Source: Emticicia sp. BO119 (lineage in GTDB: Bacteria > Bacteroidota > Bacteroidia > Cytophagales > Spirosomataceae). From it: DNA of 64,000 nt. Below the pieces are notes generated by a model. It was not told where the DNA came from. It saw only the letters and a list, made by a program, of their open reading frames with translations, and made no database searches. The position numbers were made by a program, and so were the translations under genes. Shown piece after piece: positions 1 through 26,124 of this stretch. The stretch's first letter is position 1. Every line of letters begins with the position of its first letter. The DNA lies in the NCBI RefSeq assembly GCF_013912375.1, contig NZ_JACETV010000002.1, positions 930,001 to 994,000 of the forward strand. The letters are read 5' to 3'.

Positions 1-490
1 GATAGCAAGTCTGGAAAAACTATATAAAGCGAATTTTGCGGGTAATCCTTACGAATACTTCTTTGTAGACGAAAACTTCAACAAGCAATACCTTACTGAG
101 CAACAATACAGCAGAATATTCACTACATCGTCTATCTGGGCTATTATCATTGCCTGTTTGGGCCTTTTCGGATTAGCTACCTTTACTACCGAAAGCCGTA
201 CAAAAGAAGTCGGAATCAGAAAAGTACTTGGGGCAGGGGTGTTGGGTATTACAGCATTGTTAAGTAAAGATTTTTTGAAACTGGTAATGATATCCATTCT
301 GATTGCAAGCCCTGTTGCGTATTATATGATGGATAAATGGCTGGAAAACTTTGAATACAAAGTAGATATATCATGGTGGATTTTTGCTTCCTCTGGCTTG
401 GGAGCGATAGGACTGGCCTTAATTACAGTAGGGTATCAGGCTATCAGAGCGGCTTTGATGAATCCGGTTAAATCATTAAAAACTGAATAG
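1..490 (+). CDS. FtsX-like ABC permease, C-terminal part (5' cut by window edge)
   Basis: The reading frame is open from base 2 and ends at 490, so the first ATG inside it (158) is not the real start. About 162 residues are visible: the end of the second periplasmic domain (FFVDENFNKQYLTEQQ), then the last three-helix FtsX block with CLGLFGLATF, the cytoplasmic signature TESRTKEVGIRKVLGAG, and the tail NPVKSLKTE. The same arrangement ends each downstream permease, so this is the first visible member of the array. Its N-terminal half and the array promoter lie outside the window. Confidence 0.93.
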   Translation, partial: IASLEKLYKANFAGNPYEYFFVDENFNKQYLTEQQYSRIFTTSSIWAIIIACLGLFGLATFTTESRTKEVGIRKVLGAGVLGITALLSKDFLKLVMISILIASPVAYYMMDKWLENFEYKVDISWWIFASSGLGAIGLALITVGYQAIRAALMNPVKSLKTE

Positions 491-551
491 CATAGGGCAA
501 GGGGCTTAGGGCAGAGTTTTTTCGTCCTATGCCCCATGCTCTCTGCCCTAA
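489..551. repeat. Array spacer 1: heptad-type inverted repeat
   Basis: The spacer starts at the stop codon. TTAGGGCAGAG (506-516) has a perfect complement at 541-551, and the block at 489-502 can pair with CCTATGCCCCATGCT (526-540). The two pairings interlock (order L1-L2-R1-R2), so they form either a pseudoknot or alternative hairpins. The right arm reads in 7-bp units ending in ATG or CTG. A T-run (517-522) lies in the loop. Confidence 0.75.
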
Positions 552-563
552 ACAAAAAAGATT

Positions 564-2954
564 ATGCTACGAAACTATCTGAAAATCACGCTGCGTAGCT
601 TGTTCAAAAACAAGACTTTTACGCTTATCAATGTTTCCGGACTTGCCATTAGTCTGGCGTGTTGCATTGTGCTTGGGCTATATGCCTATTCTGAAATATC
701 TTTTGATAGATTTCATCAGAAAAACAAACAGATTTTTCGTATCAACAAAGTTGTATCTGAGGTAAACAAAACCCCTGAAAAACATAGTATTACTTCGGGA
801 GCTTTGGCAACGGTATTGCCCAGAGAGATCCCTGAGATTGAGTACGCTGTGCGGTTTCGCCCCTGGTTTAATGAAATGGGAGTCAATTATGGGACTACCC
901 AGAATAAATTGAGCGATGTGGCTTATGCTGATGCTGATTTCTTTCAGATTTTCGACTTTAAATTGTTAAAAGGAGATAGACAAACAGTTTTATCTGAACC
1001 TAATACTGCGGTTATTACCGAAAAAACATCCAAGCGTTTTTTCGGTAACAATGATCCTATCGGTAAAACACTTATTACTTTGAATGAAACCCCTGTAACA
1101 ATTACGGGAGTAACAGAAGATGTTCCACTTGATTCGCATATCAAATTTGATATGCTTATTTCCTGGAAAACTACCACATCAGGACCAAACAAAGACTATT
1201 TTCCCTGGTTAAATAATTGGTTGACTCAAGTAGTTTATACCTATGTACTGGTGAAGGAAAATGCAGATAACCACTTAGTTGAGTCAAAAATCGCAACGCT
1301 TTTTAATAAAAATCTTCCTGAAAGAAAAGACCAGTACAAGCATTATCTGCAATCGATTAATGATATTTATTTAGGTTCGGCCGATGTTAAATTTTCTGAG
1401 AGTTTCAGGTCAAATAGCGATAAAATAGTTTACGCACTCATTGGTATTTCTATATTTATTCTGCTCATTGCCTGCTTCAATTTTATCAATCTCTCTACAG
1501 TTTTATCGCTCAAAAGAGTTAAAGAAGTAGGTATGCAAAAAGTATTGGGAGCGGTTCGTAAACAGTTGATTTTTAAGTCTTTCATTGAGTCGTCATTGGT
1601 TTGCTTAACAGCGTTTTTGCTGGCACTTCTACTCGTTTCAGGTTTATTGCCAGACTTTAACCAGTTAGCAAATGCTCATATAGATTTTTCTCAATTACTA
1701 CGGCCAGGTATTCTTTTTGCTCTTGTCGGTTTTATTATCATTGTGAGCCTCATGGCTGGTTTATATCCTGCGCTTTTTCAAACCCGTTTTCAGGCTGTTG
1801 ATGTCTTCAAAAGTACAACCAAGGTTGGTAAAGACTCCTGGCTACGCCAGTCGTTGGTCATAACACAATTTACTTTATCAACCCTTTTGATTATTGGTAT
1901 GATTGTCATTAATAATCAGATTGATTTTCTGGTAAAGAAAGATTTGGGCTTTGATAAAGACCAGCAAATTATTATACAATTGACTGATACAGGTATGGAG
2001 AGCAAAGCAAAGCTGTTTGTATCAAACATTCAGAGTTTTGATGGAGTCGAAAAGCTGAGCCTTAGCGCAAGAGTTCCAGGGCAAGGGTATATGGGTTTTG
2101 GAATTATTCCCGAAGGATACACCGAAAAAGATAACCTGATGGCAGGGGTGCAACAATCTGACGCCAATTATACGGCCACTTATAATATTCCTATGGTAAA
2201 AGGACGATTCTTCTCAAAGGATTTTCCAACTGATACGCTTAACTCAATTGTTATTAATGAGGCGATGGTTAAATACCTGAACTGGCAGAACCCTATTGGA
2301 AAAAGATTCAAGATTAGCGGAGGAATAGATGCCAGAGTAATAGGTGTCATGAAAGATTATAATGTGGTTTCGTTGCGCGAAACCATCCAACCGGCAGCTT
2401 TTATCTTAAAAGATAACCCTCTATATCTGACACTCAAAATAAAGACAGGCAAGATTAAAGAAACATTAGCTTTTGTAGGGAAAACATGGAAAGAGTTGGA
2501 AAGCAAGCATCCATTCAATTATTATTTTTTAGATGAAAGACTCAATCAATATTATGCATCAGATGTACGGTTGCTTCAAGTCATAAGTATTTTTGCTGGT
2601 TTGGCCATATTGGTAGCTTGTCTGGGGCTCTTTGGTTTAGCAAGTTTCGCAGCTGAAACTCGCACCAAAGAAATCGGCATCAGAAAAGTGTTAGGGGCTT
2701 CTATCCTGAGTGTCACAACATTGCTTTCGAAAGATTTCCTGAAACTTGTTTTCCTCAGTATTATCATTGCTTCTCCTATAGCTTATTATGGTATGAAACA
2801 GTGGTTGCAGGACTTTGCATACAGGATTGATATTGAGTGGTGGGTTTTTGTGTTAGCAGGGGTTTCAGCAACTGCAATTGCCTTACTGACTGTGAGTTAT
2901 CAGGCAATAAAGGCGGCTTTGATGAACCCGATTAAATCATTAAAAACGGAATAA
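564..2954 (+). CDS. MacB/FtsX-type ABC transporter permease (array copy 1)
   Basis: This is a 796-residue inner-membrane permease. It shows the layout shared by all array members. An N-terminal cytoplasmic helix (RNYLKITLRSLFKNK) and TM1 (about 19-42) precede a MacB_PCD-like periplasmic domain and a three-helix FtsX block (about 287-410). TM5 (about 430-450), a second periplasmic domain and a final FtsX block (about 671-796) follow. The chain therefore equals two MacB-type half-permeases fused in tandem, probably eight helices. In the family such proteins need a separate ATPase to drive export or extraction of a substrate; none is present here. The first cytoplasmic signature is VLSLKRVKEVGMQKVLGA, departing from the usual TARS at its start. 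The second is AETRTKEIGIRKVLGAS. The ATG at 564 follows an A-rich stretch. Substrate unknown. Confidence 0.92.
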   Translation: MLRNYLKITLRSLFKNKTFTLINVSGLAISLACCIVLGLYAYSEISFDRFHQKNKQIFRINKVVSEVNKTPEKHSITSGALATVLPREIPEIEYAVRFRPWFNEMGVNYGTTQNKLSDVAYADADFFQIFDFKLLKGDRQTVLSEPNTAVITEKTSKRFFGNNDPIGKTLITLNETPVTITGVTEDVPLDSHIKFDMLISWKTTTSGPNKDYFPWLNNWLTQVVYTYVLVKENADNHLVESKIATLFNKNLPERKDQYKHYLQSINDIYLGSADVKFSESFRSNSDKIVYALIGISIFILLIACFNFINLSTVLSLKRVKEVGMQKVLGAVRKQLIFKSFIESSLVCLTAFLLALLLVSGLLPDFNQLANAHIDFSQLLRPGILFALVGFIIIVSLMAGLYPALFQTRFQAVDVFKSTTKVGKDSWLRQSLVITQFTLSTLLIIGMIVINNQIDFLVKKDLGFDKDQQIIIQLTDTGMESKAKLFVSNIQSFDGVEKLSLSARVPGQGYMGFGIIPEGYTEKDNLMAGVQQSDANYTATYNIPMVKGRFFSKDFPTDTLNSIVINEAMVKYLNWQNPIGKRFKISGGIDARVIGVMKDYNVVSLRETIQPAAFILKDNPLYLTLKIKTGKIKETLAFVGKTWKELESKHPFNYYFLDERLNQYYASDVRLLQVISIFAGLAILVACLGLFGLASFAAETRTKEIGIRKVLGASILSVTTLLSKDFLKLVFLSIIIASPIAYYGMKQWLQDFAYRIDIEWWVFVLAGVSATAIALLTVSYQAIKAALMNPIKSLKTE

Positions 2955-2960
2955 CATGGC

Positions 2961-3020
2961 GCAAAGGGCATAGGGTAATGGTTTTTTCCTACCCTATGCT
3001 CCACACCCTATGCCCTAAGC
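2961..3020. repeat. Array spacer 2: heptad-type inverted repeat
   Basis: Arms 2961-2976 and 3005-3020 pair at 14 of 16 positions, with a perfect core GGGCATAGGGT against ACCCTATGCCC. A T-run (2982-2987) sits in the loop. The right arm repeats CTATGCY units at 7-bp and 14-bp intervals. Confidence 0.78.
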
Positions 3021-3028
3021 ACAAAACT

Positions 3029-5449
3029 ATGCTTTTAAGCTATTTCAAAATCGCATTCAGAAATCTTGTTAAGAACAAGGTTTATTCATTCATCAATATT
3101 GGTGGGCTGGCCGTAGGTATGTCTGTAGCCATATTGATAGGCCTTTGGATTTATGACGAATTATCATACGATAAATACCATAAAAATTACGAGTCTATTG
3201 CACAGATACGCAGCATAGGCACCGACCCTAATACAGGGATTACCAGAAGTGGTACAGCCTTACAATTCCCGATAGGTACAAGTCTTAAGAACAACTATAA
3301 ACACTATTTTAAAAATATATTGCTGGCATTCTGGGTAGGTGATTATACGCTTTCTTCAGTAAATGAGAAGTACCCTAAAAAGGGAGAGTTTATTGATGGA
3401 GAGGTGATTGATATGCTTTCGCTGAAAATGCTGAAAGGTTCGGCGGCATCTTTACAAGACCCACATTCAATTATTCTTTCAAAATCTACGGCAGATGCCA
3501 TTTTCGGGAGCGTTGATCCACTAAACAAAAACCTCAAAATCGACAACCGAATGGATGTAGTAGTAAGGGGTGTTTATGAAGATCTGCCAAAAAACAATCG
3601 TTTCAATGAGGTACAGTTTTTCTCTCCCTGGGCATTGTGGGTATCGTCAAATGATTGGGTAAAATCATGTGAAAACGAGTGGGAAAACAGTTCGTTTAAT
3701 GTATATGTACAAACGCAACCGAATATTTCGGTAGAGCAGGCGAATATAGCCTTGAAAGATTTTTATGATAAAAATGCGCCTAAGCAGATAGCTGAGGAGT
3801 GGAGAAAATATAATCCGGGTATATTCTTGTATCCGATGAAACAATGGCATTTATACTCAGAGTTTAAAGATGGTAAGGTAGCAGGAGGGCGCATCACCTT
3901 TGTATGGCTGTTTGGGATTGTAGGTATCTTTGTTTTGCTGTTGGCCTGTATCAATTTTATGAACCTCAGCACGGCACGCTCAGAAAAACGTGCTAAAGAA
4001 GTAGGTATCCGGAAGGCTATCGGTTCAATCAGAGTGCAATTGGTTCAACAGTTTCTAAGTGAATCTTTCCTGGTTGTTTTATTCGCCTTTGCTTTGGCTG
4101 TAGGCCTTGTTTTATTATCGTTACCGTGGTTTAATAATCTGGCTGATAAAGATATGTCGATACCGTTTACAAATCCGGTTTTCTGGGCAATCAGTATAGC
4201 ATTTATTTTATTTACAGCCGGGTTGGCTGGCGTATATCCTGCATTTTACCTCTCATCTTTCCAACCTGTCAAGGTATTGAAAGGGACTTTCAAATTAGGG
4301 CGTTTTGCTTCTCTTCCACGTAAGGTTCTGGTAGTTGTGCAATTTACAGTTTCGGTTGTGTTGATTGTAGGTACTATTGTGGTGTATCAGCAGATTAAAC
4401 ATGCCCGTAACAGACCAGTGGGTTACAATAGAGAAGGCTTGATTAAAGTATCGTTGAATGACCCTAATTATCAGGGCAAACAGGATGTGATAAAGACACA
4501 ATTAATTAATACGGGCATGGTAAAAAACATGGCCTTATCTTCAAGCCCTATGACCGAGATATGGAGCAATGCAGGTGGCTATAACTGGAAAGGCAAAGAC
4601 CCCGAATTAGCTTCTGATTTTGCAGTAATCAATGTAACACATGATTTTGGTAAACTGGTTGACTGGAAAATTATTGCCGGTCGTGATTTCTCAAGAGCCT
4701 ATGCAACAGATTCCAATGCCATAATCATTAATGAAACGGCTGCAAAATATATGGGCTTAAAGAACCCTATAGGTGAATTTATTACCAACCCTGATGAAGG
4801 TGCAGGAGAAACCTGGCAGATTATCGGGGTGGTTAAAGATTTGGTGATGCAGTCCCCTTATGACCCTGTGAAACGCTCTTTCTATTTCCTTGACCCTAAG
4901 TATGTTGATGTCAGCCAGATGATTATTAAGATTAAACCTACTGTCAGTGCAAGTGAAGCCTTGCCAAAAATAGAAGCGGTTTTCAAAGAAATAGTACCAT
5001 CTGCTTTATTTGATTATCGATTTGTTGATCAGGAATATGGCAATAAATTCAGTCAGGAAGAACGCATTGGTAAATTAGCCAGTTTCTTTGCTTTGCTTGC
5101 CATTCTTATCTCATGTTTAGGCCTGTTTGGTCTGGCTTCTTTCGTAGCAGAACAACGTACGAAAGAAATAGGCATCCGCAAAGTATTAGGCGCAAGTATA
5201 GGTAGCTTGTGGGGGATGTTATCTAAAGATTTTGTGGTATTGGTTGTTATATCATCTGTTGTAGCCGCTCCAATTGCCTATTATTTTATGAACCAGTGGT
5301 TGGAGAAATATAAATACCACACAGAAATCTCGTGGTGGATTTTTGTACTAACTGGCATGGGTGCTTTGGGTATTACCTTGTTGACCGTGAGCTATCAGGC
5401 AATTAAGGCGGCTCTGATGAATCCTATAAAGAGTTTGAAGACAGAATAG
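3029..5449 (+). CDS. MacB/FtsX-type ABC transporter permease (array copy 2)
   Basis: The protein has 806 residues from the ATG at 3029. A longer frame begins at 2978, but that would translate the inverted-repeat spacer. The 3029 start gives MLLSYFKIAFRNLVKNK, which matches the N-terminus of the other copies. First FtsX block from about 290, with CINFMNLSTARSEKRAKEVG and IRKAIGS; second from about 684, with AEQRTKEIGIRKVLGAS. The stretch WHLYSEFKDGK before TM2 and RNRPVGYN after TM5 group it with copies 5 and 11. C-terminus NPIKSLKTE. Substrate unknown. Confidence 0.92.
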   Translation: MLLSYFKIAFRNLVKNKVYSFINIGGLAVGMSVAILIGLWIYDELSYDKYHKNYESIAQIRSIGTDPNTGITRSGTALQFPIGTSLKNNYKHYFKNILLAFWVGDYTLSSVNEKYPKKGEFIDGEVIDMLSLKMLKGSAASLQDPHSIILSKSTADAIFGSVDPLNKNLKIDNRMDVVVRGVYEDLPKNNRFNEVQFFSPWALWVSSNDWVKSCENEWENSSFNVYVQTQPNISVEQANIALKDFYDKNAPKQIAEEWRKYNPGIFLYPMKQWHLYSEFKDGKVAGGRITFVWLFGIVGIFVLLLACINFMNLSTARSEKRAKEVGIRKAIGSIRVQLVQQFLSESFLVVLFAFALAVGLVLLSLPWFNNLADKDMSIPFTNPVFWAISIAFILFTAGLAGVYPAFYLSSFQPVKVLKGTFKLGRFASLPRKVLVVVQFTVSVVLIVGTIVVYQQIKHARNRPVGYNREGLIKVSLNDPNYQGKQDVIKTQLINTGMVKNMALSSSPMTEIWSNAGGYNWKGKDPELASDFAVINVTHDFGKLVDWKIIAGRDFSRAYATDSNAIIINETAAKYMGLKNPIGEFITNPDEGAGETWQIIGVVKDLVMQSPYDPVKRSFYFLDPKYVDVSQMIIKIKPTVSASEALPKIEAVFKEIVPSALFDYRFVDQEYGNKFSQEERIGKLASFFALLAILISCLGLFGLASFVAEQRTKEIGIRKVLGASIGSLWGMLSKDFVVLVVISSVVAAPIAYYFMNQWLEKYKYHTEISWWIFVLTGMGALGITLLTVSYQAIKAALMNPIKSLKTE

Positions 5450-5453
5450 CGTG

Positions 5454-5517
5454 GGGCTAAGGGCAGAGGGCATGGGGTTGAAATTTCCCTCTGCTTCATG
5501 CCCTCTGCTCTTAGCTC
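5454..5517. repeat. Array spacer 3: long heptad-type inverted repeat
   Basis: Arms 5454-5474 and 5497-5517 are complementary at 19 of 21 positions, the longest dyad of the array. The pyrimidine arm reads CTCTGCT, TCATGCC, CTCTGCT, CTTAGCT in perfect 7-bp register. Confidence 0.8.
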
Positions 5518-5532
5518 TAACCGTTACAAATT

Positions 5533-7902
5533 ATGATACGTAACTATTTAAAAATCGCCTGGAGGAATTTGTGGAAAAGCAAGAGCTTTTCCCTTATCAA
5601 CATTTTAGGTCTTTCGATGGGAATGGCCTGTAGCCTGATGATTTATCTCTGGATAGAAGATGAATATAAGAAGAATAAATTTCATGACAATAGTAAGGAT
5701 TTATATGCTATATATGAACGCCAGTATCATGATGGGAAAATAGATACTCATTTCAGTACCCCAGCTCTTATGGCTGATGAAATGAAGCGAGTGCTGCCAG
5801 AAGTAAAATATGCTTGCGGGGTTGAATGGGACTATCGCTATACTTTTCAGGTGAACGACAAAATTAATAAAGTAGTAGGGTGTTATGCAGGTGATGATTT
5901 TTTCAGGATGTTCAGTTACCCCATCTTACAAGGAACTGCTCAAACAGCTCTGACGAATCCTACAGGTATAGCTATCTCCCGTAATATGGCAGAAATGTTT
6001 TTTGGAAGTCCCCAAAAAGCAATTGGTAAGGCTATCAGATATGAGAATCGGGAAAACCTGGTAGTATCGGCTGTTTTTGAGAATGTTCCTGCTGCTGCCT
6101 CCGAGAAATTTGATTATGTGTTGAGTTGGGATACCTTCTTAAAAGAAAATGAATGGGCAAAAGATTGGGGAAACAATTCGCCTTTTACTTATGTTCAATT
6201 ACGCAATGATGCAAAACCAGCTCAATTTGAAGCTAAAATAGAACGCTTTTTAGATAACCTGAATAAAGACCAGAATAAAGCCTTTTATATCAGGCTTAGT
6301 ATGCAGAATTTCGGAGATACCTATCTTTATAATAACTTCAAAAATGGTCAACAGGCCGGAGGACGTGTCGACTACCTGCGCCTTTTTAGCATCGTCGCTA
6401 TCTTTATTTTGTTGATTGCCTGTATCAATTTTATGAACCTGGCAACTGCCCGCTCGGCCAAAAGAGCAAAAGAGGTGGGTGTCAGGAAAGTGATGGGAGC
6501 TGTAAGGTTTGCTCTGATAAGACAATTTATAGGAGAGGCTGTTTTGCTGACTTTCTTTTCGACCATTATTACCGTTTTTGCGGTATATTTCCTTTTACCT
6601 TATTTTAATACCCTGACAGGCAAGCAAATGAGTTTGCCAATAGACCAACCATTTTTTGCCTTGGGCATTATAGGTTTATTGCTATTCACAGGTGTTTTAG
6701 CAGGTAGTTACCCTGCATTTTTCTTATCCTCGTTAAGTCCGATTCGTGTCTTAAAAGGAAGTCTGAAATTCAGTGCAAATGCCTCATTTCTTCGGAAAGG
6801 ACTGGTTGTTTTTCAATTTGTACTGTCAATAGTTTTTATGATAGGAATGGTGGTTGTCTATCAGCAGGTAGAATATCTTCAGACAGAGAATATTGGGTAT
6901 AATCGTGAAAATCTGATTTCTATTCCATTAGAAGGAGATTTAGTGGTGAAATATGATTCATTTAAAGAAGAGGCTCTAAAAGCTAATGGTATCAAAAGTA
7001 TGTCTTCTATTTCTCAGAATCCAACGAGTATCCGAAATAGCACAGGAGGATTAAACTGGGTAGGCAAAGACCCGAATGTAAACATTCAGTTTACATTTGC
7101 TTTTATCAACTATGATTGGGTAAAAACAATGGATTTGAAAATGGCGTACGGCCGTGATTTCTCCAGAACTTTCTCTACCGATTCAGTTGGGCTTATTATC
7201 AATGAGGCTGCCTTGAAACGGATTAACTATAAAAATCCGATTGACCAGCCACTAACTATGTGGGGAAGAAAAGGAAAGATTGTAGGTGTATTGAAAGATT
7301 TTCATTTTACTTCTTTGCATGAGGACATTAAGCCATTAGTAATTCGTTTAGAACCCACCATAAACGATGGAAATATTCTGATCCGGACTGAAAAAGGAAA
7401 AACAAAAGAAGCAATAGATAATCTGGAGAGACTTTTTAAAGATTTTAACCCGAATTTTCCATTTACCTACAAATTTGTAGATGAAGAGTATGCAAAATTG
7501 TATAAAAGTGAGCAAATGGTGAGCAGATTATCAGGTTATTTTGCCCTGCTGGCTATTGTCATTTCCTGCCTTGGTTTATTTGGTCTGGCAGCTTTTACAG
7601 CTGAGCAACGCACGAAAGAGATTGGTATCCGCAAGGTATTGGGGGCAAGTGTAGGTAGTATTGTCGGAATGCTTTCGGGCGATTTTGTAAAATTGGTATT
7701 AATAGCGGCCGTGGTTGCTTTCCCGATTGCCGGTTGGGTAATGACTGACTGGTTGAAAAACTTTGCCTATCGCATTGATATCGGAATACCCATCTATATT
7801 ATAGCAGGAGTCGCTGCCGCACTTATTGCTTTATTAACAGTAAGTTATCAGGCCATTAAAGCCGCATTAATGAATCCTGTGAAGAGTTTGAAAACGGAAT
7901 AG
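5533..7902 (+). CDS. MacB/FtsX-type ABC transporter permease (array copy 3)
   Basis: The protein has 789 residues and begins MIRNYLKIAWRNLWKSK. First FtsX block from about 284 (CINFMNLATARSAKRAKEVG, VRKVMGA); second from about 666 (AEQRTKEIGIRKVLGAS). The segment before TM2 (YLYNNFKNGQQAGGRVDYLRLF) is a variant of the W-x-LYS-x-F-x-x-GK motif of copies 2, 5 and 11. After TM5 it has ENIGYNREN rather than the NRPxGYN form. C-terminus NPVKSLKTE. The ATG follows gttacaaatt. Confidence 0.92.
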   Translation: MIRNYLKIAWRNLWKSKSFSLINILGLSMGMACSLMIYLWIEDEYKKNKFHDNSKDLYAIYERQYHDGKIDTHFSTPALMADEMKRVLPEVKYACGVEWDYRYTFQVNDKINKVVGCYAGDDFFRMFSYPILQGTAQTALTNPTGIAISRNMAEMFFGSPQKAIGKAIRYENRENLVVSAVFENVPAAASEKFDYVLSWDTFLKENEWAKDWGNNSPFTYVQLRNDAKPAQFEAKIERFLDNLNKDQNKAFYIRLSMQNFGDTYLYNNFKNGQQAGGRVDYLRLFSIVAIFILLIACINFMNLATARSAKRAKEVGVRKVMGAVRFALIRQFIGEAVLLTFFSTIITVFAVYFLLPYFNTLTGKQMSLPIDQPFFALGIIGLLLFTGVLAGSYPAFFLSSLSPIRVLKGSLKFSANASFLRKGLVVFQFVLSIVFMIGMVVVYQQVEYLQTENIGYNRENLISIPLEGDLVVKYDSFKEEALKANGIKSMSSISQNPTSIRNSTGGLNWVGKDPNVNIQFTFAFINYDWVKTMDLKMAYGRDFSRTFSTDSVGLIINEAALKRINYKNPIDQPLTMWGRKGKIVGVLKDFHFTSLHEDIKPLVIRLEPTINDGNILIRTEKGKTKEAIDNLERLFKDFNPNFPFTYKFVDEEYAKLYKSEQMVSRLSGYFALLAIVISCLGLFGLAAFTAEQRTKEIGIRKVLGASVGSIVGMLSGDFVKLVLIAAVVAFPIAGWVMTDWLKNFAYRIDIGIPIYIIAGVAAALIALLTVSYQAIKAALMNPVKSLKTE

Positions 7903-7910
7903 CATGGGGG

Positions 7911-18372: not shown

Positions 18373-18392
18373 AGGTATTGGTGATAGGGCTT

Positions 18393-18565: not shown

Positions 18566-18574
18566 TAAAAAATT

Positions 18575-21013
18575 ATGATACGCAATTACTTGAAAATCGC
18601 CTGGCGGAATTTGTTGAAAAACAAAACATTTTCGCTTATTAACATTTCAGGGCTGGCTATTGGTTTCAGCAGCTTTATATTGATTGGCTTATATGTGATT
18701 GATGAACTCAGCTACGATAAATTTAATGAAAAAGCTGACCGGATCTACCGCCTTGAAGCCGATATACGTTTCGGTGGAACTGATTTACGCCTCGCTGTAA
18801 GTGCTGACCCCGCCGGAGCTGTACTGAAAAAAGATTATCCTGAAGTAGAACAATATGTAAGATTCTATGCCAGCGAAGGCTCTAAGTTTGTAAAAAAGGG
18901 TAATGAGTATATTACAGAAAACGACGTTGTATATGCCGACTCTACACTCTTTGATGTATTTACTTTGCCTGTAATTGCTGGTAATCCTAAAACTGCCTTA
19001 GACAAGCCTAACACGGTTGTTATTAGTGAGAGTACTGCAAAAAAATATTTTGGTAATACCGATGTTTTAGGAAAGAGCCTTGAAGTGGGGATTCAGGAAA
19101 AGACACTCTATAATATTACGGCAGTAATGAAGGATATTCCGAAGAACTCACATTTTCATTTTGATATGATTTTCTCAATGGATAATGTGGATTATGGTTT
19201 CGGGAATTTCCTGAGCCATAATTTTCATACTTATATTGTTCTGCGAAAAGGAACTGACTATAAGGCCTTTGAAAAAAAATTAGAACAGGTAATTGTTAAA
19301 TATGTGGTTCCGCAAGCCAAAGAATTTATGCAGGTGAACAGCATTGAGGAATTTAGGAAGTCGGGCAATAAATTAGAATATAGCTTAATGCCTCTTACTG
19401 ATATTCATCTGAAATCTGATAGATTCCCTGAATTAGGTGTGAATGGAAATATACAATACGTTTATATTTTCTCGGCAGTTGCCTTGTTTGTGCTATTATT
19501 GGCCTGTATTAACTTTATGAATCTCTCAACTGCCCGTTCAGCCAATCGGGCTAAAGAAGTAGGCATCCGCAAGGTTTTAGGTACTGGCAAAGGTACTTTA
19601 ATGAGTCAGTTTATGGCGGAGTCGGCTTTGATGAGTTATCTTGCTTTTGTGGTAGCCTTATTGCTTACCTGGCTTATCTTACCTTACTTTAATGATCTGG
19701 CCGCTAAGTCGTTTACTTTTAGCACCTTGTTCTCATTAAAAACTTTACCTTTGCTTTTATTATTACCTGTGGCAGTGGGTATAATAGCAGGGTATTATCC
19801 TGCATTTTTTCTTTCTTCTTTCAGACCGATTGTTGTGCTAAAAGGTAAGATAAATGCCGGATTCCAGAAAAGTAATTTTCGTAATGCTTTAGTGACCTTC
19901 CAGTTTTTTACTTCAATATTTCTGGTTATAAGCACCATTATTGTTTATCGGCAGTTAAACTATATTCAGACCAAAAATGTAGGTTTCAACAAAGATCAGG
20001 TTTTAATTATTGATGGGACAAGTGCCTTAGGCCAGAAATCTGAATCTTTCAAAAATGAAGTTATGAAGCTGGCTGGTGTTCAGAACGGTACTAATGCAGG
20101 TTATCTACCGGTATCCAATTCTTCCCGTAATGATAACAGTTTTTCTAAAGAAGCTGTAATGGATATGAAAAATGGCTTCAATATGCAGGTATGGAGGGTA
20201 GACTATGATTATATTCCTACTTTGGGAATGAAAATTGTAAAAGGTAGAAACTTCTCCAGGCAATTTGGTGCTGATTCAAGCGGCATTATTATCAATGAAG
20301 CAGCCGCAAAGATATTAGGTTATGAAAATCCGATTGGAAAAAAATTGTACACTTCAGATGGGCCACCCAATTCTGGTCAGAATATAACCTATGAAATAGT
20401 TGGAGTAGTTGAAAATTTTCATTTTTCTTCTATGCATGAAACCATCGGGCCTTTAAGTATGCGTTTGGGCAGAAGCAACTGGTCAATGGCATTTAAAGTG
20501 CGTACTGACGACTTGAAAGCACTGGTCAATAAAATAGAACAGAAATACAGAGCTATGGCTCCTGAAATGCCATTCAGCTATAATTTTTTAGATGAAAGCT
20601 TTGACCAGATGTATCGTGCCGAGCAGAGAGTTGGTAAAATAGCCATCACTTTTGCTATTCTTACGGTGTTGATTGCTTGCCTTGGGTTATTTGGCCTTGT
20701 AACGTATATCTCTGAACAACGCACTAAAGAAGTAGGTATAAGAAAGGTATTGGGAGCATCGGTTTTTAGTATTACGACACTGCTAACCAAAGATTTTATC
20801 AAATTAGTGGTAGTAGCCTTGCTTGTTGCCAGTCCGATAGCTTATTGGCTAATGAACAAATGGCTCACAGATTTTACTTATCGTATTGATATTGAATGGT
20901 GGGTCTTTGCCTTAGCAGGTGTAATCGCTATTTTGATTGCTATATTGACAGTAAGTTATCAGGCTATTAAATCAGCCCTGATGAATCCGGTTAAATCGTT
21001 GAAGACAGAATAG
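18575..21013 (+). CDS. MacB/FtsX-type ABC transporter permease (array copy 8)
   Basis: The protein has 812 residues and begins MIRNYLKIAWRNLLKNK. FtsX blocks from about 293 (TARSANRAKEVGIRKVLGT) and 687 (SEQRTKEVGIRKVLGAS). Pre-TM2 motif DIHLKSDRFPELGVNG; after TM5 NYIQTKNVGFNKDQ, as in copy 12 (NYIQNKELGYSKD). The loop HSFHFDMIFSMDN-like region of the first periplasmic domain carries the KNSHFHF signature also seen in copies 6 and 12. Tail KSLKTE. ATG preceded by taaaaaatt. Confidence 0.92.
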   Translation: MIRNYLKIAWRNLLKNKTFSLINISGLAIGFSSFILIGLYVIDELSYDKFNEKADRIYRLEADIRFGGTDLRLAVSADPAGAVLKKDYPEVEQYVRFYASEGSKFVKKGNEYITENDVVYADSTLFDVFTLPVIAGNPKTALDKPNTVVISESTAKKYFGNTDVLGKSLEVGIQEKTLYNITAVMKDIPKNSHFHFDMIFSMDNVDYGFGNFLSHNFHTYIVLRKGTDYKAFEKKLEQVIVKYVVPQAKEFMQVNSIEEFRKSGNKLEYSLMPLTDIHLKSDRFPELGVNGNIQYVYIFSAVALFVLLLACINFMNLSTARSANRAKEVGIRKVLGTGKGTLMSQFMAESALMSYLAFVVALLLTWLILPYFNDLAAKSFTFSTLFSLKTLPLLLLLPVAVGIIAGYYPAFFLSSFRPIVVLKGKINAGFQKSNFRNALVTFQFFTSIFLVISTIIVYRQLNYIQTKNVGFNKDQVLIIDGTSALGQKSESFKNEVMKLAGVQNGTNAGYLPVSNSSRNDNSFSKEAVMDMKNGFNMQVWRVDYDYIPTLGMKIVKGRNFSRQFGADSSGIIINEAAAKILGYENPIGKKLYTSDGPPNSGQNITYEIVGVVENFHFSSMHETIGPLSMRLGRSNWSMAFKVRTDDLKALVNKIEQKYRAMAPEMPFSYNFLDESFDQMYRAEQRVGKIAITFAILTVLIACLGLFGLVTYISEQRTKEVGIRKVLGASVFSITTLLTKDFIKLVVVALLVASPIAYWLMNKWLTDFTYRIDIEWWVFALAGVIAILIAILTVSYQAIKSALMNPVKSLKTE

Positions 21014-21029
21014 TGGAGAAAGGAGACGG

Positions 21030-21123
21030 AAAACGGAGAAAGGATTTTTTAAATATTAGAGTTTTTAAATTAGAATAGATTAGGAAAAGGGATTTTTTCA
21101 ATCCTTTTTCCTTTCTCCGTTTT
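21030..21123. repeat. Array spacer 9: 14-bp perfect inverted repeat
   Basis: AAAACGGAGAAAGG (21030-21043) has a perfect complement at 21110-21123. The pyrimidine arm runs CCTTTTT, CCTTTCT, CCGTTTT, TCGTTAA in 7-bp register. The 66-base loop is AT-rich. Confidence 0.78.
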
Positions 21124-21142
21124 TCGTTAACCTGACAAAATT

Positions 21143-23578
21143 ATGCTAAAAAACTATTTCAAAATCGCCTGGAGGAATTTGATGAGACACAAGGTGTTTT
21201 CTTTCATCAATATCTTTGGCTTAACGGTTGGCTTAACCAGCTTTCTTTTAATTGCCTTATACATTTTTGATGAACTGACATTCGACAGTTTTCATACCCA
21301 TGCCGATAATATTTATCGGTTAGTGAATAAAAAAGTCTCTGCTGAAGGCAAAGAGGCTAAAGTGGCCAGTGTAGCCTATCAGATTTCAGAGGCCGGGAAA
21401 ACTACTTTTCCGGAAATCATAAAAGCAGCCAGATTTACTACCTCGGGTAGAACCAATGTAGGGACACAGGAAAATACGAACGTTTTTTATGAAAATTATT
21501 CAATTGCCAATAGCGATTTTTTAGAGGTGCTAGACTTCGATTTATTGTCAGGCAACCGAAAGACGGCTTTAACTGCTCCAAATTCAGTAGTTCTCACTGA
21601 AGAATCTGCGATGAAATACTTTAATTCTACCAATGTAATCGGTAAAGCGATTAAAGTAGACGGCGATTCTCTTCCTTATACAGTTACAGCCGTTCTGAAA
21701 GATATTCCTGTCAATTCGCATATTTCATTCAATATAGTTTTTTCGGAGTCAAGTATTACGGGTAAGCGTTTCCGTGATTTCATCAGTTCAGACTGGAGTT
21801 CTGATAACTTTACGACCTATCTTTTGCTCGACGCAAAAGCTGAACCGAAAAGTCTGGAGTCAAAGCTCAACCAGTTAATAAAATCTAAACGCTCATCTGA
21901 CGAAAAAGATAAGTACACCTATTCGCTTCAGCCGATAAAAGACATTCATTTTTACTCAAACGATTTTGAGGGAGCATCGGGAGGTAACCTTGCCTATATC
22001 TATATTTTTGCTGTACTGGCAGTCTTTGTATTGGTGATTGCTTGCATCAATTACATGAATCTTACAACAGCCAGGTTTGCTAACCGTGCCAGAGAAATAG
22101 GCGTACGTAAAACAGCAGGCGCTACTCGCGAAAACCTGATTAAACAGTTTATAGCCGAGGCATTTATGATGACAGCCATTGCGTTATTCTTAGCCTTATT
22201 GGTTGTGCAGGCATTGTTACCCTACTTCAATAATTTTACCCATAAAGAACTCACACTTAATTTTAATACAGATTATCGTATCTGGGTTGGTGTAGGTATT
22301 GTTGTAGTAGTAGCCAGTCTGATGTCAGGGATGTATCCTGCTTTGTTTCAATCCAGTATCAGGCCGATTTTATTGCTGAAAAATAAAATCAACGTAGGTA
22401 AAGGTAGTCTTTCAATCCGCCGCCTGCTTGTTATCTTCCAGTTTTCTCTGTCTATTATTATGATAGTGGCTACTGCCATAGTGTATCTTCAAATGAGATA
22501 TATAGACACAAAAGATATGGGTTTTAAGAAAGATCAGTTAGTAATAGTAGATATAAATAGTGGTAAAGTAAGACGTGGTGCCGAAACCATCAAAAGAGAA
22601 TTTGCTAAACTATCTCAGGTAAAAAATGTATCAGTTAGCTCTCGTGTGCCCGGTGAATGGAAAAATCTGGTGAAAGTACGGGCGAAAAATGAGAATATTA
22701 CCTCCTTAGAAGGTAAGGATATGTATTTTTTAGGCATAGATGACCAATTCGTGAAAACCTATGATATTCAGTTAGTAAAGGGTAGAAACTTTACTAATAC
22801 AGGTACAACTGACTCTACTGCTGTTATTATTAATGAAAGTGCTGCTAAACAATTGGGTATTACACAGGCATCAAACCAGATAATTGAGATTCCGAGTGTT
22901 GATTATGGTGGTAGTATCGAAAAACTCGATGCTTCGTTTAATGTAAGGGTGGTAGGTATAGTTAAAGACTTCAATTTCCAGTCATTACATCAGTCCGTTT
23001 CCCCCATGATATTAGGGTTTCGAAATAATCCTTTTCAAAGTATTGATTATTTCAGCAGCAGAGTTAACTCAGATAATATCAGCCAGACCCTCAAGCAGAT
23101 GGATAATATTCTACACAGCATAGATGCCGATCATTTGTTTGAATACCATTTTTTGGATAAGCAATGGGATTTATTCTATCAACAAGACCAGATACAGCAA
23201 ACCATCTTCTTGATTGTAGCAATACTCACAATTCTGATTGCTTGCTTAGGGTTGTTTGGTCTGGCAACTTATGCAGCCGAGCAACGTATAAAGGAAATAG
23301 GTGTCCGCAAGGTTTTAGGAGCAAGTATCGGTAGCATCATTGTGATTCTGACAAAAGACTTTGTAAAACTGGTATTGATAGCAGCTCTCATTGCCTTTCC
23401 GATAGCCTGGTGGGCCATGCACAACTGGCTGCAAGACTTTGCTTATCATATTGACATAAAATGGTGGGTATTTGCGCTGGCAGGTATGATAGCCATAACA
23501 ATAGCCTTGCTTACAATCAGTTACCAGACTATCAGGGCTGCACTAATGAATCCGGTAAAATCTTTGAAATCAGAATAG
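21143..23578 (+). CDS. MacB/FtsX-type ABC transporter permease (array copy 9)
   Basis: The protein has 811 residues and begins MLKNYFKIAWRNLMRHK. FtsX blocks from about 286 (CINYMNLTTARFANRAREIG, VRKTAGA) and 690 (AEQRIKEIGVRKVLGAS). Pre-TM2 motif DIHFYSNDFEGASGG, second group. It has QTIRAALMNPVKSLKSE instead of QAIKAAL at the end. Its second periplasmic domain carries an insertion around IPSVDYGGSIEKLDASF before the conserved VVGIVKDFNF strand. Confidence 0.92.
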   Translation: MLKNYFKIAWRNLMRHKVFSFINIFGLTVGLTSFLLIALYIFDELTFDSFHTHADNIYRLVNKKVSAEGKEAKVASVAYQISEAGKTTFPEIIKAARFTTSGRTNVGTQENTNVFYENYSIANSDFLEVLDFDLLSGNRKTALTAPNSVVLTEESAMKYFNSTNVIGKAIKVDGDSLPYTVTAVLKDIPVNSHISFNIVFSESSITGKRFRDFISSDWSSDNFTTYLLLDAKAEPKSLESKLNQLIKSKRSSDEKDKYTYSLQPIKDIHFYSNDFEGASGGNLAYIYIFAVLAVFVLVIACINYMNLTTARFANRAREIGVRKTAGATRENLIKQFIAEAFMMTAIALFLALLVVQALLPYFNNFTHKELTLNFNTDYRIWVGVGIVVVVASLMSGMYPALFQSSIRPILLLKNKINVGKGSLSIRRLLVIFQFSLSIIMIVATAIVYLQMRYIDTKDMGFKKDQLVIVDINSGKVRRGAETIKREFAKLSQVKNVSVSSRVPGEWKNLVKVRAKNENITSLEGKDMYFLGIDDQFVKTYDIQLVKGRNFTNTGTTDSTAVIINESAAKQLGITQASNQIIEIPSVDYGGSIEKLDASFNVRVVGIVKDFNFQSLHQSVSPMILGFRNNPFQSIDYFSSRVNSDNISQTLKQMDNILHSIDADHLFEYHFLDKQWDLFYQQDQIQQTIFLIVAILTILIACLGLFGLATYAAEQRIKEIGVRKVLGASIGSIIVILTKDFVKLVLIAALIAFPIAWWAMHNWLQDFAYHIDIKWWVFALAGMIAITIALLTISYQTIRAALMNPVKSLKSE

Positions 23579-23587
23579 CAATGAGTC

Positions 23588-23631
23588 GGGAGTATAGAGT
23601 TCAGGGAGATAGCCTTGCCCTATGCTCCCTG
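23588..23631. repeat. Array spacer 10: short inverted repeats
   Basis: GGGAGTATAG (23588-23597) pairs with CTATGCTCCC (23620-23629) at 9 of 10 positions, the tenth being a G-T pair. CAGGGAG (23602-23608) pairs perfectly with 23625-23631. The two pairings overlap on the right arm, so they are alternatives. Confidence 0.68.
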
Positions 23632-23654
23632 CTCTTTGTCCAAAGCAAAAAACT

Positions 23655-26048
23655 ATGCTCAAAAACTACGTCAAAATCGCCTTCAGAAATTTACTGAAAA
23701 ACAAGGTTTTCAGTATTATCAACATAGTAGGGCTGGCCATAGGGATGGCTGTTTGTATGTTGATTCTGCTGTATGTTTCACACGAGTTAAGTTATGATAA
23801 ATTTCACAGGAATGGGAAGAATATCTTTCAAACTCTGGTGAAGATGAAGTTTGGTGCTAATGAAGTACAGTTTAATCTGGTATCAAAAAACTTTGGTAAT
23901 GCCGTAAAACAGACGAATCCTGAGGTGCTTGATTATGTACGTATCGGTACTCCTTTTGGAGATGATGTGGTGATTAAGTCTGACGAAAATCACAAGTTTT
24001 TTGAGCGTAAATTCGTTTTCTCAGAACCCTCTTTGTTTAATCTTTTTTCGATAAATCTTCTGCAGGGTAACCCGAAAACTGTGCTGGCCGAACCAAATAC
24101 AGTGGTGATTAATGAAGAAATGGCGCAGAAATATTTTGGGAAAACAGACCCTGTAGGCAAGGCCATTACTTATAATAAAAAAGATGTTCTGACTATTACA
24201 GGTATATTCAGGAAATTGCCTACCAATTCTACGCTTGATTTTGATTTCATAGGTTCATTTTTAACTTATGATGCCATTATGAAACGGGAAAGGGTGCAAA
24301 TGTATGAGTCGGATGAGATGGTAGGAACAGGAAGCTATGAAACCTATTTTTTATTGAATAAGCCTGAATCAGTTGCTAAGGTAGAAAAGGTCATCCCGAA
24401 AGTGTTAACCAAAGACGAAAATAATGGCCTTATTTCGCATTCTACTTTTGTATTAACACCATTTCTTGACTCTCATTTAGGCAATAACTGGGGCGATTTT
24501 TCTAATACCAAATATGTTTCTATATTCCTGATTATTGCTGGAATTGTATTGCTTCTGGCTTTAATTAACTATATGAGCCTTACAACAGCGCGGTCTACGG
24601 TTAGGGTAAAAGAGGTCGGAGTACGCAAGGTTTTAGGAGCTAATCGTCAACATTTGGCCACGCAATTTTATGGAGAGTCTATTATAGTAAGCCTGATTTC
24701 ATTTGTACTGGCATTGATTTTATTTCAGCTTTTAAAACAGCCTTTTTATAATTTATTGAGCCTTAATATTGATGATTCTTTCATTACAAGCCCACTGTTT
24801 TTGAGTATCCTATTGGCTTTACTGGTTTTCACATCTTTAGTAGCAGGTAGTTATCCGGCTTTGCTTTTGTCTAAATTTTCGCCTATTCAGGTACTGAAAG
24901 GTAAGTTTGCCTCTGGTAATCAAGGCACTAATTTACGTCGTGTCTTTATTGTGTTTCAGTTCATGGCATCAGTGGTGATGATTATTTGTAGTATGGTGGT
25001 GCAGAAACAATTAAGGTATCTCCAAACCAGGAAAATAGGTTTGAACAAAGAACAGGTATTGGTGTTACCTCTCCCGAATGAAGCCCGCAAGCACCCAATT
25101 GCATTAAGACACGACTTAAAGCAAGAGGCGGGTATTCAACAGATAGGTGCTTCTTCCTTATCGATGTTTTCGGGTGGCTGGAATATGTATTTTACCAAAA
25201 CCCCGACTACCAACGAAGATGTGAGTATCAATAATATGGAAGTAGACGAAGATTTTCTGAAAATTCTGCAATTGGACTGGAAAGTGAAACCTGCCAGTAT
25301 AGAACAGTTAGCTTTTGGTGACGATAAGATTGTGATTAATGAAACGGCTGTCGAAAAGCTTAAAATAGTAGAGAAGCCTATCGGGCAGCATTTGAATTTA
25401 GCCGGACACAACCGGGAAATTGTGGGGGTAGTTAAAGACTTTAACTTTACTTCTTTACAGCAGAAAATAGATGGTATGTTGCTAATGGTGGTAAAAGATA
25501 CTACTCAACTACGGACGCTATATCTGAAAATAGACCCGAAAGTAGACCTGCAAAAAAGATTAGCTTCTATTGAAAAAGTCTATAAAAAATACGAAGTCGA
25601 TGTGCCTTTCGATTATTATTTCTTAGACGATGCCTTTAACAAACAATATCGCTCAGAGCAACGTATGGGAAGCCTTTTTGCCGGCTTTACAACTGTGGCT
25701 ATTCTTATTGCCTGCATGGGTCTGTTTGGGCTGATTACTTTTACAGCCGAGCAAAAAATAAAAGAAATTGGTATCAGAAAAGTATTAGGTGCAACTATTG
25801 GGAATATTGTGGGTCTATTATCCAGAGACTTCATTCGCCTCGTATTAATCGCCAATGGTATTGCTTTTCCGATAGCTTATTATTTCATGAATGACTGGCT
25901 GCAAGGCTTTGCCTACAAAACCGATATAGGTGCGGGCATTTTTGTAACAGCAGGTATTTTAGCTATCAGCATTGCCTTGCTCACAGTTCTTTATCAGGCC
26001 ATCAGGGCGGCATTAATGAATCCGGTGAAGTCATTGAAGTCGGAGTAA
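23655..26048 (+). CDS. MacB/FtsX-type ABC transporter permease (array copy 10)
   Basis: The protein has 797 residues from the ATG at 23655 (MLKNYVKIAFRNLLKNK); an upstream in-frame start at 23622 would only translate the spacer. FtsX blocks from about 285 (LINYMSLTTARSTVRVKEVG, VRKVLGA) and 672 (AEQKIKEIGIRKVLGAT). It lacks the DIHL motif and has FLDSHLGNNWGDFSNTKYVSIF-type sequence before TM2, so it stands apart from both main groups. The final helices carry VLYQAIRAALMNPVKSLKSE-like residues. Confidence 0.91.
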   Translation: MLKNYVKIAFRNLLKNKVFSIINIVGLAIGMAVCMLILLYVSHELSYDKFHRNGKNIFQTLVKMKFGANEVQFNLVSKNFGNAVKQTNPEVLDYVRIGTPFGDDVVIKSDENHKFFERKFVFSEPSLFNLFSINLLQGNPKTVLAEPNTVVINEEMAQKYFGKTDPVGKAITYNKKDVLTITGIFRKLPTNSTLDFDFIGSFLTYDAIMKRERVQMYESDEMVGTGSYETYFLLNKPESVAKVEKVIPKVLTKDENNGLISHSTFVLTPFLDSHLGNNWGDFSNTKYVSIFLIIAGIVLLLALINYMSLTTARSTVRVKEVGVRKVLGANRQHLATQFYGESIIVSLISFVLALILFQLLKQPFYNLLSLNIDDSFITSPLFLSILLALLVFTSLVAGSYPALLLSKFSPIQVLKGKFASGNQGTNLRRVFIVFQFMASVVMIICSMVVQKQLRYLQTRKIGLNKEQVLVLPLPNEARKHPIALRHDLKQEAGIQQIGASSLSMFSGGWNMYFTKTPTTNEDVSINNMEVDEDFLKILQLDWKVKPASIEQLAFGDDKIVINETAVEKLKIVEKPIGQHLNLAGHNREIVGVVKDFNFTSLQQKIDGMLLMVVKDTTQLRTLYLKIDPKVDLQKRLASIEKVYKKYEVDVPFDYYFLDDAFNKQYRSEQRMGSLFAGFTTVAILIACMGLFGLITFTAEQKIKEIGIRKVLGATIGNIVGLLSRDFIRLVLIANGIAFPIAYYFMNDWLQGFAYKTDIGAGIFVTAGILAISIALLTVLYQAIRAALMNPVKSLKSE

Positions 26049-26124
26049 AACGGAAAGAAGAATCTGAAGAGTATTATCCTTTTAATTATTCTTTAGATGG
26101 AGGCATCTTCTTCCTTTCTCTGTT
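26049..26124. repeat. Array spacer 11: purine/pyrimidine inverted repeat
   Basis: The A/G-rich arm from 26049 (aacggaaagaagaa) is imperfectly complementary to the C/T-rich arm 26105-26124 (ending ctctgtt). It is the same arrangement as the other spacers, with little exact sequence in common with spacers 1 to 4. Confidence 0.55.

What the first reader, a model, noticed from the sequence alone, without database searches (positions are those of the whole stretch)
489..26124. Array spacers are hairpins built from degenerate 7-bp units, unlike in sequence but alike in design
After almost every permease stop codon comes a G/A-rich arm and before the next start a C/T-rich arm that pairs with it (for example 2961-3020, 5454-5517, 7911-7965, 13229-13276, 21030-21123). 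The arms read in 7-bp register (CTCTGCT, TTCTGCC, CTATGCY). Different spacers use different sequence yet keep complementarity, suggesting compensatory change or a palindrome-generating mechanism. The units recall the heptanucleotide STRR repeats of cyanobacteria. Possible roles are mRNA segment protection, translational insulation between cistrons, triplex-forming DNA, or repeated recombination points that expand the array.
Basis: seen in the sequence. Interest (0 to 1): 0.75.

Follow-up and report, generated by a model that had tools for sequence, protein, structure and literature searches.

The report
Swappable seven-base hairpins between permease genes
The gaps between a long row of related transporter genes hold hairpin-shaped DNA made of variable seven-letter units, and related species often have a different kind of repeat in the same gap while the genes on either side stay put, so the gaps look like exchangeable repeat cassettes rather than slowly co-evolving RNA structures.

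Summary
The hairpins are real. All five places named fold far better than shuffled sequence (z -4.25 to -8.14); 8 of 11 inter-permease gaps do, two do not, one was not scored. The 7-nt register is real: lag-7 excess in 33 gaps of this genome, none in 40 control gaps (p 1.4e-7).

Compensatory change is not supported as the main cause. Pairing comes mostly from a shared heptad core (GGGC/GCCC), and one junction kept in three species has 1 compensatory pair of 21. At orthologous junctions the gap is often another repeat family (16 of 34 pairs; 14 of 31 without one mosaic or weak junction), with coding sequence intact to the stop and start codons. Stems show no G-U excess (91 G-U, 112 A-C), unlike terminator-like hairpins (63, 28).

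Best reading: resident heptad inverted-repeat cassettes, exchanged as units. Closest known: the Nostoc tRNA-Leu intron P6b hairpin and the G-rich heptamers of Xanthomonas, whose inverted pairs are also convergent. Here G-arm-first beats C-arm-first 85:0 matches in 8 family genomes and 681:5 in 10 genomes picked for G-first hits.

The parts
489..563 (+). type-1 (NNRGGGC / GCCCYNN) heptad hairpin after a permease stop codon
   Evidence: z -4.89; sequence
2955..3028 (+). type-1 heptad hairpin; by the conserved N-terminus the next gene starts at 3029, so the ORF start at 2978 is probably wrong
   Evidence: z -4.35 for 2961-3020; spacer; best period 7; type label set by hand
5450..5532 (+). type-1 heptad hairpin, the most nearly perfect stem
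   Evidence: z -8.14 for 5454-5517; best period 7
7903..7984 (+). type-1 heptad hairpin
   Evidence: z -5.01 for 7911-7965; best period 7
10629..10751 (+). decayed permease C-terminus (..LIGLALLTISFQAIKAALTNPIKSLKAE*) inside the long gap 10355-10833
   Evidence: translation; likeness to the intact C-termini judged by eye
10752..10833 (+). weak type-2-like hairpin after the relic's stop codon
   Evidence: MFE -13.0 for 10751-10833, not tested against shuffles
13225..13297 (+). type-1 heptad hairpin
   Evidence: z -4.30 for 13229-13276; best period 12, with 7 second
15731..15924 (+). type-2 (GGARAAN / NTTYTCC) heptad remnants at both ends; no significant folding
   Evidence: z 0.42 for its first 140 nt; whole gap z -0.37; best period 7
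18373..18574 (+). type-2-like gap, weak; the orthologous gap is type 4 in G008 and begins as type 4 in G001
   Evidence: z -0.65; orthologues
21014..21142 (+). type-2 heptad hairpin, kept at the orthologous junction of one relative
   Evidence: z -4.25 for 21030-21123; orthologue G001 L179:13939
23579..23654 (+). degenerate type-1 hairpin; type 4 at the orthologous junction of G008
   Evidence: z -3.99
26049..26151 (+). type-2-like hairpin (label set by hand)
   Evidence: z -2.13
564..28512 (+). tandem array of 11 permeases of about 800 aa (MacB_PCD and FtsX domains) whose gaps hold the hairpins
   Evidence: ORFs; Pfam on two of the 11 (each domain found twice); paralogy by BLASTP

Best explanation
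The gaps are occupied by resident inverted-repeat cassettes of several unrelated families. Types 1 and 2 are arrays of a degenerate 7-nt unit facing their own inverted copy; type 4 is a palindromic repeat (CCCCTAAAGGGG...CCCCTTTAGGGG) in gaps mostly 80-150 nt long. SHOWN: the cassette between stop and start codons often belongs to another family in a related species while the genes stay orthologous; most gaps resemble gaps at other junctions more than their own orthologue; arms pair mainly because every unit shares a core, so pairing survives loss, gain or shuffling of units. INFERRED: units expand, contract and mutate by slippage or template switching, and cassettes move between junctions by short recombination or insertion and deletion. 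The permease gaps accumulate them because paralogous gene ends are alike and tolerant. In the mRNA they fold into intercistronic stem-loops that are not intrinsic terminators; any effect on mRNA or translation is secondary.
For: Replacement: 16 of 34 orthologous junction pairs differ in family, 9 of 16 with both flanks at least 85% identical in protein, 4 of 7 at least 90%. Two of those four involve the weak window gap 18373, one of them against a mosaic gap; without these two gaps the counts are 14 of 31, 7 of 13 and 2 of 4. Flanking DNA matches up to stop and start codons, e.g. L025:10121 (type 1) against G001 L182:10606 and G008 L189:14987 (type 4). The best-matching gap is at a non-orthologous junction for 33 of 41 junctions. 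Core-driven pairing. Little covariation. No RNA-strand signature: 91 G-U, 112 A-C in 62 stems of types 1, 2, 3 and 5 against 63 and 28 in 116 terminator-like hairpins, Fisher p 1.4e-4. No terminator tail: TTTT within 8 nt of the stem in 0 of 16 type-1 gaps (an early, stricter labelling). In three relatives with few or no typed gaps (G003, G025, G030) 11 of 22 scored gaps have z < -2 (2 of 5, 4 of 9, 5 of 8), about as in controls (17 of 40). Type-1 units in this genome sit mostly at permeases: of 20 sites, 16 abut a permease gene and one of the other four lies inside a coding sequence.
Against: Most junctions in the hairpin-rich species keep some hairpin although its family changes, which a selected structure would also give. 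The permutation test shows slight real matching of variable positions (p 0.007). For type 1 the best between-gap match scores are low (17 to 32.5), so sharing between junctions is best shown for type 4. The G-U test assumes both arms mutate alike, and the terminator control may be biased by its T-rich end. No donor junction or breakpoint was identified; at this divergence neutral gaps would be hard to align anyway. In Xanthomonas, heptamer repeats mostly stay in the same gene context and keep their type between two species (PMC4692102, passages), unlike here. Family labels come from a regex classifier plus 11 hand corrections.
Confidence: 0.55

Rival explanations
1. Selected intercistronic RNA hairpins: any strong stem-loop will do, so sequence is free while structure is kept. 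It would protect mRNA segments or separate termination on one cistron from initiation on the next.
For: Type-1 stems start a median 3 nt after the stop and end a median 10.5 nt before the next start (16 gaps), leaving the A/T-rich start region free. Hairpin families are replaced by other hairpin families. Type-1 and type-2 gaps fold strongly (28 of 31 and 20 of 24 with z < -2). Some gaps of species without types 1 to 5 hold other strong hairpins (e.g. G003 L197:11195 z -8.33, G025 L199:14354 z -6.96).
Against: No G-U over A-C excess on the mRNA strand. Half of the scored gaps of G003, G025 and G030 (11 of 22) do not reach z < -2. 2 of 11 window gaps are unstructured. In G025 the two ends of some gaps carry, by eye, two unrelated, non-complementary heptad families (L202:9452, L202:12031), with z -0.40 and 1.39.
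Confidence: 0.25
2. REP-like mobile palindromes moved by a RAYT (Y1 transposase), with arms that have since decayed.
For: The genome has a Y1 transposase gene at C22:516465; type 4 is a repeated palindromic element also found near non-permease genes.
Against: That transposase gene is flanked by other palindromes (CCCCAGCTTTAGCTGGGG, GGCTTTAGCC), not by heptads or type 4 (by eye). Type-1 and type-2 copies share only a 7-nt unit, not a conserved element sequence; no GTAG or CGTC tag was noticed, but none was searched for.
Confidence: 0.08
3. A palindrome-making process: a 3' end carrying G-rich heptads folds back and copies itself, or two such ends are joined head to head, leaving a G-arm-first inverted heptad array.
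For: G-arm-first exceeds C-arm-first 85 to 0 in 8 family genomes and 681 to 5 in 10 genomes reached through named records; inverted pairs of GGGAATC in Xanthomonas are also reported as convergent, 70 and 75 cases in two species (PMC4692102, passages); the 7-nt palindromic design occurs in unrelated phyla; weak residual matching between arms is what decayed copying would leave; long arrays exist (L031:5861-6039).
Against: No enzyme or intermediate identified. Type 4 is C-first (by eye). The 10 genomes were chosen because they hold G-first hits, and overlapping matches are counted more than once. 81 of the 85 family matches are in one genome. No young, perfect heptad palindrome at an otherwise empty site was found or specifically searched for.
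Confidence: 0.1
4. Ordinary intrinsic terminators or chance low-complexity sequence.
For: 17 of 40 control gaps also fold with z < -2.
Against: None of the 21 terminator-like sites of a consensus scan over 400-20000 lies in a permease gap (gaps after 20000 not scanned); lag-7 signal absent from controls.
Confidence: 0.02

Closest known systems
P6b stem-loop of the Nostoc tRNA-Leu(UAA) group I intron (Kaasalainen et al. 2015, PMC4476775; abstract and passages read)
   Same: A hairpin built from one of two different 7-nt repeat motifs (class I TDNGATT, class II NNTGAGT); sequence very different, structure alike; class II repeatedly replaced by class I; length varies by whole 7-nt units.
   Different: There it lies inside a self-splicing intron; here between protein genes, with other units, more families and many copies per genome.
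Intergenic G-rich heptamer repeats GGGAATC / GGGGA(C/T)T of Xanthomonas and Nostoc (PMC4692102; passages read)
   Same: Degenerate G-rich 7-nt units in intergenic DNA near the 5' neighbouring gene. In Xanthomonas 70 and 75 cases are close inverted pairs in convergent orientation, as here, with a stem-loop or cruciform suggested. 17 of 35 type-1 gaps here also have four runs of three or more G.
   Different: One unit family per genome; 83% of repeats stay in the same gene context between two Xanthomonas species and usually keep their type, whereas here families are often exchanged. Type 2 here has no such G runs (0 of 25), so a quadruplex cannot be the common feature.
TAACTGA heptamer direct repeats of Beggiatoaceae, some cyanobacteria and five Bacteroidetes (PMC4679880; abstract and passages read)
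   Same: 7-nt intergenic repeats near start codons, found in some Bacteroidetes.
   Different: One fixed unit, nearly all direct repeats, not predicted to fold by themselves; here degenerate units in inverted arms.
REP / RAYT palindromes (PMC3733652; abstract and passages read)
   Same: Intergenic palindromes proposed to act in mRNA stability or termination.
   Different: Most REPs carry a GTAG or CGTC tag and, from general knowledge, a conserved sequence; heptad cassettes lack a conserved sequence and no tag was noticed.

Membership tests
Degenerate heptanucleotide hairpins (Nostoc P6b design) | both stem arms made of a degenerate 7-nt unit | tested here: met
   lag-7 and lag-14 peaks within arms of type 1 (32 gaps) and type 2 (25 gaps), not of types 3, 4 and 5
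Degenerate heptanucleotide hairpins (Nostoc P6b design) | lies in a group I intron of tRNA-Leu | tested here: not met
   no Rfam family reaches its gathering score in window 1-36000; the hairpins lie between permease genes
Xanthomonas-type G-rich heptamer inverted pairs | convergent (G-arm-first) orientation of the two arrays | tested here: met
   85 to 0 matches in 8 family genomes, for type 1 only
Xanthomonas-type G-rich heptamer inverted pairs | unit GGGAATC or GGGANTN | tested here: not met
   unit columns are NNRGGGC with a fixed C after the G run
Cyanobacterial STRR repeats | tandem direct 7-nt units | tested here: met
   the STRR unit sequences themselves are recalled and were not compared
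REP elements | conserved palindrome flanking a RAYT gene | tested here: not met
   the strong Y1 transposase locus L009 carries other palindromes, no heptads (by eye); the weaker second hit (L010) was not inspected
Intrinsic terminators | stem followed by a T run | tested here: not met
   TTTT within 8 nt in 0 of 16 type-1 and 3 of 10 type-2 gaps (early labelling); no consensus site in the gaps of 400-20000
TAACTGA repeats | unit TAACTGA | tested here: not met
   type-1 unit columns are NNRGGGC; spacers printed
Structured RNA under pair selection | compensatory changes, G-U tolerated over A-C | tested here: not met
   1 of 21 pairs compensatory in 3 orthologues; 91 G-U against 112 A-C

The most novel reading that the evidence does not exclude
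A sequence-independent process found in several phyla builds G-arm-first palindromes from degenerate 7-nt units, by fold-back copying or head-to-head joining of G-rich 3' ends. Gene arrays then trade the products as whole intercistronic cassettes. The 7-nt period and the one-way polarity would be signatures of the copying enzyme.
Probability: 0.13. Interest if true: 0.85.

Novelty: new variant of a known kind. Interest (0 to 1): 0.5.

Why it matters
It gives a dense natural dataset, dozens of paralogous junctions per genome, for asking how bacterial intergenic repeats turn over: the genes are fixed markers and the cassette between them changes family. The G-first polarity, reported as convergent pairs in Xanthomonas and seen here in a Bacteroidota family, a purple sulfur bacterium and a Chloroflexi bin, is a simple rule that any model of how heptad palindromes arise must explain. 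It also warns that strong hairpins between cistrons, alike in design and unlike in sequence, need not mean compensatory RNA evolution.

Tried and rejected
Compensatory evolution: rejected as the main cause. RNA-strand selection: tested with G-U against A-C; all families together gave 184 G-U and 222 A-C (p 0.07), and type 2 alone leaned the other way (29 to 50, p 0.02). RAYT mobility: transposase found but with its own palindromes. Gene conversion with long tracts: not supported, because the stop-side flanks keep orthologue-level identity beyond the last 15 nt; short tracts in the paralogue-like ends (76% identical between positions 3 and 33 from the end, 22 junctions) remain possible. G-quadruplex as common cause: fails for type 2 (0 of 25 gaps). 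Start-codon context as cause of the polarity: unlikely, since it also holds in Thiohalocapsa, where by a crude ORF search several of the copies looked at are not next to a start. A strict ungapped inverted-repeat scan found two of the window's hairpins (5456-5515, 21026-21127) and missed the more degenerate ones. The phylum sample (11 of 395 genomes with a hit, the window's own included) told little: the other ten hits look like G+C-rich sequence and were not inspected further. Two early regex classifiers were too strict and were replaced; labels of 11 junctions were then corrected by hand (8, 3). Before correction the classifier labelled 28 of 34 gaps of this genome and 4 of 40 controls. Passages seen showed that convergent heptamer pairs were already reported in Xanthomonas, so the polarity is no longer called unexpected and interest was lowered from 0.58 to 0.5.

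Rows dropped: junctions with gaps outside 10-348 nt (so 10355-10833 in the window, and 489, whose upstream gene is cut by the window edge, are not among the 156); 18 of 156 gaps outside 50-250 nt for the z-scores; 14 of 39 hairpins that could not be parsed into heptads; gaps under 45 nt or over 230 nt, and stems scoring under 9; single 2-mismatch hits.
Full report
SETTING. The window lies in an unnamed 6.57-Mb genome (G000, contig C12). It opens with a tandem array of about 800-aa permeases; two of the 11 were checked against Pfam and carry two MacB_PCD and two FtsX stretches each. The genome has 124 MacB_PCD matches, several in long tandem arrays (the same in relatives). That the phylum is Bacteroidota is my inference from the genes and from the named records holding the same kind of junction (Spirosoma, Fibrisoma, Siphonobacter).

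OBSERVATION. All five named hairpins fold far better than dinucleotide shuffles, and 8 of 11 gaps do. In one search, 138 of 156 gaps from 10 genomes were scored; in this genome the median z is -3.21 over 33 gaps against -1.36 over 40 control same-strand gaps. Controls are not unstructured (17 of 40 below -2), so folding is not the distinctive part. The 7-nt register is: lag-7 excess 0.121 against -0.006 (p 1.4e-7). Within arms, type 1 (32 gaps) and type 2 (25 gaps) peak at lags 7 and 14, type 3 (6 gaps) at 4 and 8, types 4 and 5 at none. The type-1 unit is NNRGGGC, third position A or G in 79 of 86 units of the 5' arm.

HOW THE ARMS PAIR. Because every unit has the GGGC core and the other arm its complement, any unit pairs with any other. 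Permuting the variable triplets among the units of each arm raises the energy only slightly (mean z -0.64, Wilcoxon p 0.007; with triplets drawn from the pooled hairpins, z -0.74, p 0.0009; 25 of 39 hairpins parsed). The orthologous type-1 junction kept in G000, G001 and G008 gives 21 consensus pairs, 1 with a compensatory change, covariation term +0.78. So different sequence with kept complementarity needs no compensatory history, although the slight matching is real.

REPLACEMENT. Best hits on both flanks between five species of the genus gave 34 orthologous junction pairs (best hit taken in one direction, among the junctions fetched). Types differ in 16 (9 type 2/type 4, 7 type 1/type 4); 17 keep the type (12 type 4, 3 type 1, 2 type 2) and 1 is unclassified on both sides. 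With both flanks at least 85% identical 9 of 16 differ, at least 90% 4 of 7. One G001 gap (L179:16515) begins as type 4 and ends with type-2-like sequence, a mosaic, and the window gap 18373 is only weakly type 2; without these two gaps the counts are 14 of 31, 7 of 13 and 2 of 4. The pairs are not independent: they touch 13 junctions of this genome. The coding flanks stay matched to the last codon and from the first in the seven sets printed. Stop-side identity at 15-60 nt is the same for switched and unswitched pairs (with its cruder types; on the start side two switched pairs had a wrong start and read 0). 33 of 41 junctions have their best gap match at a non-orthologous junction, in the same or another genome; for type 1 these matches are weak.

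RNA OR DNA. A stem kept as RNA tolerates G-U better than A-C on its own strand. With a scoring that treats both alike, stems of types 1, 2, 3 and 5 (62 gaps) carry 91 G-U and 112 A-C; 116 terminator-like hairpins from the same genomes carry 63 and 28; Fisher p 1.4e-4. Type-1 stems have no T tail (0 of 16) and no terminator-like site of the scan over 400-20000 falls in a gap. In G003, G025 and G030, which have few or no typed gaps, 11 of 22 gaps fold below -2, about as in controls, but some of those hairpins are strong. In G025 some gaps carry, by eye, one heptad family after the stop and another, non-complementary one before the start (L202:9452, L202:12031).

DISTRIBUTION. A pattern of three type-1 units with up to 2 mismatches gives 86 matches in this genome against 9 for the reversed pattern. 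Grouped into 20 sites (single 2-mismatch hits dropped), 16 abut a permease gene; of the other four, one (C12:957107) lies inside a coding sequence. Among 58 genomes, the window's own included, the exact pattern has a match in 14 and is rich in G028, G008 and G034. Those include type-1 hairpins between permeases in Siphonobacter aquaeclarae, Fibrisoma limi and Spirosoma arboris, and upstream of a permease in Spirosoma profusum and in a Gemmatimonadetes bin. Palindromes of the same design occur in Thiohalocapsa, Roseiflexaceae, Saprospiraceae and Nostoc (one search printed 29 of the 116); many other hits are probably chance in G+C-rich genomes.

POLARITY. Two GGGC units followed by two GCCC units within 8-38 nt: 85 matches in 8 family genomes (81 of them in G028; 4 genomes with none), 0 with the arms the other way round. 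In 10 genomes picked because they held a hit: 681 against 5, of which Thiohalocapsa 487 against 3. Overlapping matches are counted more than once. In Xanthomonas the inverted pairs of GGGAATC arrays are also described as convergent, 70 and 75 cases in two species (PMC4692102, passages), so the rule is not wholly new. Duplex stability is the same for both orders (established knowledge), so the bias points to how the palindromes arise or are kept. Type 4 is C-first (by eye) and breaks the rule.

LITERATURE. The P6b hairpin of Nostoc (PMC4476775, abstract and passages) has the same design, including repeated replacement of one 7-nt motif class by another. Heptamer repeats are also known in Xanthomonas and Nostoc (PMC4692102, passages) and as TAACTGA in Beggiatoaceae and a few Bacteroidetes (PMC4679880, abstract and passages). 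Searches on heptamers with Bacteroidetes, Cytophagales, Spirosoma, FtsX, Thiohalocapsa and RAYT (listings seen) showed no paper on these hairpins in permease arrays; the library lacks most subscription journals.

VERDICT. Real, not chance; a new variant of a known kind, heptad hairpins. The interpretation shifts from co-evolving RNA stems to exchanged repeat cassettes. What makes the 7-nt unit and the polarity is open.

Noticed in passing
window 10629-10751: Relic of a permease C-terminus between two intact permeases: the array seems to have lost a gene but kept its tail and a following gap.
   Followed up: partly
L009 (G000:C22:514965-518306): A Y1 transposase (RAYT-like) gene flanked by palindromes CCCCAGCTTTAGCTGGGG and GGCTTTAGCC, apparently its own REP family.
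   Followed up: partly
L031:5861-6039 and L032:12733-12813 (G008): Long tandem arrays of about 25 and about 12 type-1 units lie at the very ends of contigs, so arrays may be longer and break assemblies.
   Followed up: no
L076 and other Thiohalocapsa sp. ML1 loci: 487 G-first heptad palindrome matches (overlaps counted) in one 6.3-Mb genome, with units such as GGGCCAA and GGGCCGA.
   Followed up: partly
L152:5727-5777 (Gemmatimonadetes bin): A type-1-like heptad palindrome just upstream of a permease homologue in another phylum.
   Followed up: no
L059:4617-4709, L058:9978-10142, L033:5562-5659 (G034): Heptad arms stand beside or enclose a second, conserved palindromic element (about CTCCCTTTCTCCGCGGGAGAAAGGGCGGGGGGATAGAGGC): nested repeats.
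   Followed up: no
L202:9452-9582 and L202:12031-12144 (G025): Gaps with heptads TGNANAA after the stop and CTAAYNN before the start, not complementary to each other; unexplained.
   Followed up: no
G000:C2:43386, C4:26761, C5:11689, C6:28545, C22:549003: Type-4 palindrome copies near non-permease genes, so type 4 is a general intergenic repeat.
   Followed up: partly
L040:18447-18563: Type-5 hairpin (TCTGAACTTTGATTTACCTGATT...) with no permease beside it, the longest inverted repeat that the ungapped scan found in the eight random stretches.
   Followed up: no
window 28599-30331: A sensor histidine kinase (PF06580) and a 229-aa gene beside it sit directly downstream of the permease array, on the other strand.
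   Followed up: partly
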